A stretch of 64,000 nucleotides of DNA. Source: Bacteroidota bacterium (GTDB lineage Bacteria; Bacteroidota; Bacteroidia; JAHEXY01). Positions 50,187-52,172 of the stretch are shown piece after piece. The notes beneath the pieces were generated by a model. That model saw only the letters and a list, made by a program, of their open reading frames with translations. It searched no databases and was not told the origin of the DNA. Numbering within the stretch: position 1 is the first letter of the stretch; every line of letters starts with the position of its first letter. Location: the NCBI GenBank assembly GCA_023251875.1, contig JAHEXY010000003.1, positions 248,001 to 312,000 of the forward strand, in the 5' to 3' direction. A program made the translations under genes and the position numbers.

Positions 50187-50480
50187 CTACTTTACAGGCG
50201 GCACTATCACAAAAATTTCCTCATTGTCTTTTTTCATGAGGTATTTTTCTCTGGCAAATTTTTCTAAGGTTTTAGGATCATGCATAAGTTCATACATAGC
50301 CAACTCATCATCAGTAATTTGATTTAAGAAATATATTTTTTCATCCTCCATTTTATGAAGTTCTTGCGTAAGATGAAACTGGGAAGCAATGTCATTATGA
50401 TCAAAAAAAGACAGCCAAACGATAAAAGCAGTTAAACTAATTAAGTATTTATTTTTTATAATAGATAAAAACCTTTTCAT
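50187..50480 (-). CDS. DivIC/FtsB-like septum formation protein
   Basis: About 97 residues from ATG 50480: a short cytoplasmic basic part, one membrane span (KYLISLTAFIVWLSFF), then a periplasmic helix (about 35-60) and the FAREKYLMKKDNEEIFVI motif of DivIC/FtsB (septum initiator, Pfam DivIC). These bitopic proteins join FtsL/FtsQ in the divisome. Size is right for the family. The longer frame from 50555 adds 25 unlikely residues. A TAATTTTG -7-like box is on the minus strand at 50529-50536. Confidence 0.88.
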   Translation of the reverse strand: MKRFLSIIKNKYLISLTAFIVWLSFFDHNDIASQFHLTQELHKMEDEKIYFLNQITDDELAMYELMHDPKTLEKFAREKYLMKKDNEEIFVIVPPVK

Positions 50481-50528
50481 GAGGAATCTTTTTATTAGCT
50501 CGAAAAATAAGACTTTCTTATTATAAAA

Positions 50529-50536
50529 CAAAATTA
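50529..50536 (-). promoter_or_regulatory. Candidate -7 box of the DivIC/FtsB-like gene
   Basis: The minus strand reads TAATTTTG (TANNTTTG), about 50 bp upstream of the start codon at 50480. No convincing -33 element. Confidence 0.35.
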
Positions 50537-50627
50537 AAACATTCATCCCTTGCATAAATTATGAGATATAATGTAACCTTTTGGGCCTTTATGCGTTTAA
50601 CCATTAAACCCAAAAAAATCTACAACT

Positions 50628-50777
50628 ATGGAAAATAAGAAAAAATTAAAGCTAGCTGATTAAAAAATGGAGAGCTTTGCAATCAATTCAACTAATAAAG
50701 ATTTTAGTAAAGTAAAAGGCGGAGGCAGATCTCTTGCAATTTTACACACTATTTATAACTCGCAAAGAGAAAAATAA
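50628..50777 (+). pseudogene. RiPP precursor-like peptide (GG leader) interrupted by one in-frame TAA
   Basis: From ATG 50628 the frame reads MENKKKLKLAD, a TAA at 50661-50663, then KMESFAINSTNKDFSKVKGG, then GRSLAILHTIYNSQREK and a TAA at 50775-50777. The K-K-L-x-L-x-x-x-K-x-x-S-F leader and the G-G at 718-723 are the pattern of Bacteroidota RiPP/lanthipeptide precursors (pinensin-like and GG-leader families), in which Leu occupies the position of the stop (TTA would need one change). Alternatively translation starts at ATG 50667, giving a 36-residue peptide. A terminator follows. No modification or export genes are nearby, so this is either a relic or an orphan precursor. Confidence 0.55.
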
Positions 50778-50809
50778 AAAAAGAGTTTTTAAAATCATTA
50801 TAATTAATA

Positions 50810-50845
50810 AAGGGAATGTTCATTAAAGCATTCCCCTTATTTGTT
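50810..50845. terminator. Intrinsic terminator between the RiPP-like peptide and hemL
   Basis: AAGGGAATG (50810-50818) pairs with CATTCCCCTT (50829-50838), one bulged base, followed by TTTGTTTTT. It lies 33 bp after the peptide stop and just beyond the 3' end of the convergent hemL gene, so it may serve mainly the plus-strand peptide transcript. Confidence 0.7.
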
Positions 50846-50846
50846 T

Positions 50847-52172
50847 TTACAATGCTTTTTCCATTTTGCTTTCCGTAAATACCTCTGACAAGCAATTTGC
50901 AAAAATACTTGCCGCCTTTAATAAAGTAGCATCATCATGTGCTGCAGAAATAAAACCAACCTCATAGCCTGATGGGCCCAAATACACTCCTCGTTTCAAT
51001 AATTTATGATACATTTTATTGAATATTTTCATGCTATTGGCATCAATTTCATCAGCCCTTTTAATACTATTTAATTCTGTAAAGGCAAACCAAAAAATAG
51101 ATCCAATAGAGAAAAACTTTAAGTTCAAGGTTTCAAGTTCTACATTTTGAAGATTATCCTTGATAGCGGTAATAAATAGATTTGTTTTTCTTTCTAAGTC
51201 GGTATAAAATCCAGGTTTTAAACATTCTTTTAATTGAGCAATGCCAGCAGACATAGAAACAGGATTACCCGACAATGTGCCCGCCTGATAAACGGGCCCA
51301 TCAGGAGAAATAAACGACATAATTTCTCTACTACCGCCATAAGCACCAACAGGCATTCCTCCTCCAATAATTTTTCCATAAGTAACAATATCCGGTTGAA
51401 TATTGTAGTAAGCCGAGGCTCCTTCAAAACCAATTCTAAAACCACTAATTACTTCATCAAAAATTAAAAGAGCATTGTAATCAGTACACAATTCACGCAA
51501 TAAAGTTAAATAGCTTTCATCTTGCAATAATAATCCATTATTAGCGGGAATGGGTTCAATAATTACCGCTGCAATTTCATGGTGATGATGTTTAAAAACA
51601 TGTTCAATTGCTTCTCTGTGATTAAGAGATACAACAATAGTTTCGTTGGCAAATGTTTCCGGAACTCCTGCTGAAGAGCTTGTTCCAAAGGTAGCTAAAC
51701 CAGAACCTGCTTTTACCAATAAAGAATCTGAATGGCCATGATAACATCCATCAAATTTTATTATTTTATTTTTTTGGGTAAAACCTCTTGCTAATCGAAT
51801 TGCCGACATTACAGCCTCTGTTCCGGAACTTACAAATCTAATTTTCTCAACAAATCTATTATTGCTAATAATTAATTCTGCTAATTCGTTTTCTAATTGG
51901 GTAGGAGCACCAAACGACAATCCATTTTGAATGGTTTTGGTAATAGAATCTCTGATTACCGAATTATTATGTCCGAGAATTAATGGCCCCCAAGAGCAGC
52001 AAAAATCAATATATGCATTCCCATCAACGTCCCATAGGGTACAACCATCGCCTTTTTCTATAAAAATAGGGGTGCCTCCTACTGATCTAAATGCACGAAC
52101 CGGTGAATTTACACCTCCAGGGAAACAATGAAGAGATTTTTGATATAATTTTTCTGATGTGGCTATATTCAT
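50847..52172 (-). CDS. hemL: Glutamate-1-semialdehyde 2,1-aminomutase
   Basis: Converts glutamate-1-semialdehyde to 5-aminolevulinate, the second step of C5 tetrapyrrole synthesis, using PLP. 441 residues with the class III aminotransferase motifs: SSGTEAVMSAIRLARG (115-130), FDEVISGFR (238-246, Asp239 for the pyridine nitrogen) and the Schiff-base Lys267 in TYGKIIGGGMPVGA. The N-terminal FPGGVNSPVRAF is diagnostic of HemL rather than other class III enzymes. The length is typical. No other hem gene adjoins it. Confidence 0.95.
   Translation of the reverse strand: MNIATSEKLYQKSLHCFPGGVNSPVRAFRSVGGTPIFIEKGDGCTLWDVDGNAYIDFCCSWGPLILGHNNSVIRDSITKTIQNGLSFGAPTQLENELAELIISNNRFVEKIRFVSSGTEAVMSAIRLARGFTQKNKIIKFDGCYHGHSDSLLVKAGSGLATFGTSSSAGVPETFANETIVVSLNHREAIEHVFKHHHHEIAAVIIEPIPANNGLLLQDESYLTLLRELCTDYNALLIFDEVISGFRIGFEGASAYYNIQPDIVTYGKIIGGGMPVGAYGGSREIMSFISPDGPVYQAGTLSGNPVSMSAGIAQLKECLKPGFYTDLERKTNLFITAIKDNLQNVELETLNLKFFSIGSIFWFAFTELNSIKRADEIDANSMKIFNKMYHKLLKRGVYLGPSGYEVGFISAAHDDATLLKAASIFANCLSEVFTESKMEKAL

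What the first reader, a model, noticed from the sequence alone, without database searches (positions are those of the whole stretch)
50628..50777. Lanthipeptide/GG-leader-like precursor with a single in-frame TAA
The frame MENKKKLKLAD-stop-KMESFAINSTNKDFSKVKGG-GRSLAILHTIYNSQREK looks like a Bacteroidota RiPP leader (KKLxLxxxKxxSF, then GG) followed by a short core. The TAA stands where related leaders have Leu (TTA), one base away. It is followed by a clear terminator, so it is an independent transcription unit. Possibilities: recent pseudogene, restart at ATG 50667, base error, or stop readthrough. It is too short and broken to be called by ORF finders.
Basis: partly seen in the sequence, partly recalled or inferred. 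Interest (0 to 1): 0.65.

Follow-up and report, generated by a model that had tools for sequence, protein, structure and literature searches.

The report
Broken lanthipeptide precursor gene remnant
This is most likely the dead remnant of one of several scattered genes for lanthipeptides (ring-bearing, often antimicrobial small peptides) in a Bacteroidota genome that still carries six intact relatives and the enzymes to process them, so it is an ordinary case of gene decay and not a sign of unusual decoding.

Summary
Window 50628-50777 (+) reads MENKKKLKLAD*KMESFAINSTNKDFSKVKGG-GRSLAILHTIYNSQREK, with one in-frame TAA at 50661. The leader is not a chance match. The same genome holds six intact precursors that pass the NCBIfam pinensin-leader model (NF038180) and align without gaps. 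A profile of those six scores the window copy at 15.6 bits, above all of 20,000 shuffles (best 12.4). Split LanB parts, two LanC and one GG-peptidase (C39) ABC exporter lie on other contigs.

The window copy itself looks dead. The stop falls where all six intact leaders have Leu or Ile. Both leader columns that are invariantly Thr are lost. Intact leaders diverge mainly at third codon positions; the window copy shows little such bias. Its 17-residue core has no Cys, against 3-6 Cys in the six intact paralogues. It misses the family cut-off. A second copy, on C23, is broken by a frame change. A sequencing error, a restart at ATG 50667 or readthrough cannot be excluded but explain less. The "independent unit" claim is weak: the hairpin begins 11 nt past the stop of hemL and folds on either strand. 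Verdict: a decayed, otherwise ordinary member of a known kind.

The parts
50628..50660 (+). 5' part of the leader-like frame, MENKKKLKLAD; its ATG has A at -3, -6, -12 and -13, the favourable Bacteroidota initiation context
   Evidence: context rule from PMC6847099
50661..50663 (+). in-frame TAA stop, in the column that is Leu/Ile in the six intact paralogue leaders
50664..50723 (+). rest of the leader-like frame, KMESFAINSTNKDFSKVKGG, with a possible restart at ATG 50667
50724..50777 (+). core-like tail GRSLAILHTIYNSQREK and stop; no cysteine; no significant similarity to paralogue cores
50812..50835 (.). terminator-like hairpin between the remnant (+) and hemL (-); could serve either strand, most simply hemL
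50847..52172 (-). flanking gene, class-III aminotransferase, hemL-like (glutamate-1-semialdehyde aminomutase)
50187..50555 (-). flanking gene, DivIC/FtsB-like septum formation initiator

Best explanation
It is a degenerate pseudogene (remnant) of a pinensin-type class I lanthipeptide precursor, one of at least eight scattered copies in this genome. An intact copy would work as follows (inferred from the known family): the split LanB dehydrates Ser/Thr in the core after reading the leader, LanC adds Cys to form lanthionine rings, and the C39 ABC exporter cuts after GG and exports the product. This copy ends translation after 11 codons, has lost conserved leader positions and has no Cys to make rings, so it makes no product. 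Shown: the homology, the stop, the lost residues, the missing Cys, the presence of the enzyme genes. Inferred: that it is not translated usefully, and that the stop and the other changes reflect relaxed selection.
For: Six intact paralogues in the same genome pass the NF038180 cut-off (40.2-51.1 bits vs 24) and align gap-free with the window leader; 0 of 20,000 shuffles score as high. LanB N-part on C8, Lant_dehydr_C on C10 and C14, LanC on C8 and C10, one C39-ABC exporter with HlyD partner on C14. The window copy has a stop in a fixed Leu/Ile column, Thr replaced at the two columns where all six have Thr, and only 18 of 28 columns with a residue seen in intact leaders (intact: 19-24). Codon-position bias is weak: mean identity to intact leaders 17.0/17.0/14.2 of 27 at positions 1/2/3 (position 2 minus 3 = 2.8), against 7.0-9.6 for each intact leader. 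Core of 17 residues with 0 Cys; intact paralogue cores have 35-65 residues and 3-6 Cys. Another copy at C23 is broken by a frame change. No equivalent appears in 394 other phylum genomes sampled or next to hemL in 80 other Bacteroidota loci.
Against: The start context of ATG 50628 is still good, the KKLKL and KVKGG ends are kept, and a Cys-free member exists elsewhere (L126, in genome G029), so lack of Cys alone is not proof of death. Only 27 codons underlie the codon-position comparison, the paralogues are not independent, and no significance test was made for it. There is no close relative in which to see an orthologue.
Confidence: 0.82

Rival explanations
1. The TAA is a base-calling or assembly error and the gene is an intact, atypical precursor with a short Cys-free core.
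For: A single stop in an otherwise open frame; a Cys-free family member exists in another genome (L126).
Against: The other conserved positions lost, weak codon-position bias and very short Cys-free core would remain unexplained. The assembly looks good (23 contigs, 100% complete, 0.17% contamination). Reads are not available.
Confidence: 0.08
2. Translation restarts at ATG 50667 and a 36-residue peptide, MESFAINSTNKDFSKVKGG-GRSLAILHTIYNSQREK, is made, cut after GG and exported unmodified, for instance as a signal.
For: ATG lies only 3 nt after the stop codon, with A at -3 and -13; the GG end is kept and a C39 exporter is encoded.
Against: The KKLxL half of the leader is lost; no homologue of the restart form was found by family scan, and none of the whole frame outside this genome in the 394 other phylum genomes sampled.
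Confidence: 0.05
3. Programmed readthrough of the TAA produces a little full-length precursor.
For: The frame downstream of the stop still aligns with the leader.
Against: TAA is the commonest terminator (30 of 40 open frames of 220+ codons). No recoding signal was identified, but none was specifically searched for. None of the family matches listed in the class survey, at E up to 0.001, has an internal stop. The stretch after the stop is itself eroded.
Confidence: 0.02
4. Chance resemblance: an AT-rich intergenic frame that happens to look like a leader.
For: No curated model hits it; in long six-frame scanning it has E 0.23 in 0.84 Mb.
Against: Gap-free 28-column match from KKL to KGG placed just after an ATG with a favourable start context; 0 of 20,000 shuffles score as high; the best other matches in the genome search are exactly the pinensin precursors.
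Confidence: 0.03

Closest known systems
Pinensin-family lanthipeptide precursors (NCBIfam NF038180 leader_pinensin)
   Same: KKLxLxxLKVxSFxT...KGG leader layout, same spacing, LanB/LanC and C39 exporter in the genome
   Different: Stop inside the leader, lost Thr and hydrophobic positions, score below the model's cut-off, short Cys-free core, no biosynthesis gene nearby
Bacteroidetes class I LanA with LxLxKx5L-type leaders, many ending in GG and cut by C39 proteases (PMC7268733)
   Same: GG end, an L-x-L then K pattern, and the phylum
   Different: Those described are intact and found in clusters with their enzymes; this one is broken and remote, and its L-to-K spacing is that of the pinensin leaders (LxLxxxK)
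TIGR04149 GG-leader rSAM-modified RiPPs of Bacteroidota
   Same: K-rich start and GG end; one intact paralogue matches weakly (15.8 bits, below the cut-off of 25)
   Different: Neither the window copy nor the paralogues scanned pass its cut-off; radical SAM partners were not searched for

Membership tests
Pinensin-family lanthipeptide precursor (NF038180) | Leader scores above the curated cut-off (24 bits) | tested here: not met
   No hit for the window copy; six intact paralogues pass
Pinensin-family lanthipeptide precursor (NF038180) | Homology of the leader to members of the family | tested here: met
   15.6 bits with a profile of six members, 0 of 20,000 shuffles as high
Pinensin-family lanthipeptide precursor (NF038180) | Uninterrupted reading frame from leader to core | tested here: not met
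   TAA at 50661
Class I lanthipeptide | Core with Ser/Thr and Cys for (methyl)lanthionine rings | tested here: not met
   Core GRSLAILHTIYNSQREK has Ser/Thr but no Cys
Class I lanthipeptide | LanB dehydratase and LanC cyclase in the genome | tested here: met
   Split LanB on C8, C10, C14; LanC on C8 and C10; none on the window's contig C22
Class I lanthipeptide | Lanthionine in a mature product | not testable with these tools
   Needs mass spectrometry
GG-leader peptide exported by a C39 ABC transporter | GG at the leader end and a C39 peptidase-ABC exporter in the genome | tested here: met
   VKGG at the leader end; one C39-ABC on C14

The most novel reading that the evidence does not exclude
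The locus still makes a short Cys-free peptide, by restart at ATG 50667, that uses the GG site and the C39 exporter without ring formation, that is, a lanthipeptide precursor turned into an unmodified exported (perhaps signalling) peptide.
Probability: 0.04. Interest if true: 0.55.

Novelty: new member of a known kind. Interest (0 to 1): 0.18.

Why it matters
On its own it matters little: it is a decayed copy. It did lead to a dispersed pinensin-like system in this genome: six intact precursors, five of them without LanB, LanC or C39 genes nearby, alongside one broken by a frame change and this one. If the scattered precursors are served in trans by the few LanB/LanC genes, that would resemble the many-precursor prochlorosin arrangement of class II (from general knowledge), and turnover of copies would be expected.

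Tried and rejected
Chance resemblance was tested by shuffles. A frameshifted Cys-rich tail downstream: reading the sequence by eye shows no Cys-rich continuation before the hairpin. Origin of the core from a paralogue core: the best match, L087, is not significant (141 of 2000 shuffles as good). A longer DNA-level duplicate of 50480-50846 elsewhere in the genome: only short, mostly AT-rich matches; the one that overlaps the start (C9:18496) lies in or next to unrelated open frames with no leader. An orthologue in relatives: none in 98 relatives or 394 other genomes of the phylum, and none next to hemL in 80 loci; the relatives offered share only the class with this one. A Bacteroidota TTTG-N-TAnnTTTG promoter in the flanks: no exact match in 13 kb.

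Full report
OBSERVATION. It lies between a DivIC-like gene (50187-50555, -) and a hemL-like aminotransferase gene (50847-52172, -). The ATG at 50628 has A at -3, -6, -12 and -13, the favourable positions reported for Flavobacterium johnsoniae (PMC6847099); the ATG at 50667 has only two of the four.

IS IT A LEADER? Searching the window's own genome (G000, 4.8 Mb, 23 contigs) with the frame finds itself and then small open frames on C8, C10, C18 and C22 (in which the stop was read as a residue for the search; with X at the stop the C8 and C10 matches stay at E 0.0039 and 0.0067). Those open frames hit NCBIfam NF038180, pinensin family lanthipeptide, well above its cut-off. A genome search with that model finds six intact members (40.2-51.1 bits) and one partial, broken one on C23. 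The six leaders align without gaps from KKL to KGG. A profile of them scores the window copy at 15.6 bits over its full length; the best of 20,000 shuffles of the window peptide reached 12.4. NF038180 itself does not find the window copy, so the copy is homologous but diverged.

THE MACHINERY. The genome encodes a LanB N-part on C8, Lant_dehydr_C proteins on C10 and C14, LanC on C8 and C10 and one C39-peptidase ABC exporter followed by an HlyD-type protein on C14. The precursor on C10 lies beside a Lant_dehydr_C protein, a luciferase-like oxidoreductase and LanC. The other five intact precursors and the window copy have no LanB, LanC or C39 gene close by; the one on C8 is 160 kb or more from that contig's LanB and LanC. 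Split LanB proteins are known for pinensin, and GG-ending class I leaders with C39 proteases are known for Bacteroidetes (PMC7268733).

IS IT ALIVE? Four lines say no. (1) The stop is in a column that is Leu or Ile in all six intact leaders. (2) Thr is replaced at the two columns where all six have Thr, and the hydrophobic residues at columns 14 and 17 are changed to Ala and Ser; 18 of 28 columns carry a residue seen in intact leaders, against 19-24 for intact leaders tested against one another. (3) Intact leaders differ from each other mostly at third codon positions (position 2 minus position 3 identity 7.0-9.6 of 27 codons); the window copy shows only 2.8, as expected if protein-level selection had lapsed (27 codons, no formal test). 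(4) The core has 17 residues and no Cys, against 35-65 residues and 3-6 Cys in the six intact paralogues. Caveat to (4): of the family matches in other genomes, L126 has a Cys-free core, and L112 and L113 end at GG with no core at all, so missing Cys is rare but not unique. The C23 copy is broken too: its leader-like frame stops after a few more codons while a second frame carries on. Decay of copies is therefore seen twice in this genome.

TRANSCRIPTION. A hairpin at 50812-50835 has a T-rich tail on +. It lies 11 nt beyond the stop of hemL and folds as well on the - strand. It may be a shared terminator or simply that of hemL; it does not show that the remnant is an independent unit. The sigma-70-type scan finds no promoter on +, and a TTTG/TAnnTTTG pattern has no exact match in 13 kb around it; neither excludes a promoter.

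RIVALS. A base error cannot be excluded without reads but would leave lines 2-4 unexplained. A restart at 50667 would give a peptide lacking the KKLxL half of the leader. Readthrough has no support: TAA is the usual stop (30 of 40 long frames), and none of the family matches listed in the class survey has an internal stop.

RELATIVES. The genome is isolated; the relatives offered share only its class. The pinensin leader was found in 6 of 395 class genomes, this one included; one of them (G029) has 12 copies spread over eight contigs. No orthologue of the window copy was found in 394 other genomes of the phylum, nor a leader next to hemL in 80 Bacteroidota loci.

VERDICT. A decayed copy of a known kind of gene.

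Noticed in passing
G000 C5, C8, C10, C18, C22 (two) with LanB/LanC/C39 on C8, C10, C14 (L086-L091, L099-L101): Dispersed pinensin-like system: six intact precursors on five contigs, only the C10 one beside biosynthesis genes; LanB parts, LanC and exporter scattered. Possibly one enzyme set acting in trans on many precursors.
   Followed up: partly
L092 / L104, G000 C23 about 75.0-75.2 kb, - strand: A second broken pinensin-type precursor: the leader matches for 21 positions, then the frame is lost while another frame carries an NNGG... tail ending in Cys.
   Followed up: partly
L112 and L113 (genomes G011 and G156, same genus): Short proteins in which a pinensin-like leader motif stands at the C-terminus and the frame ends right at ...TAGG-stop, so there is a leader and no core. 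Unexplained.
   Followed up: no
L109, L114, L116, L119-L127, genome G029: Twelve pinensin-type precursors spread over eight contigs of one genome, including a Cys-free one (L126) downstream of a Cys-containing one (L124).
   Followed up: no
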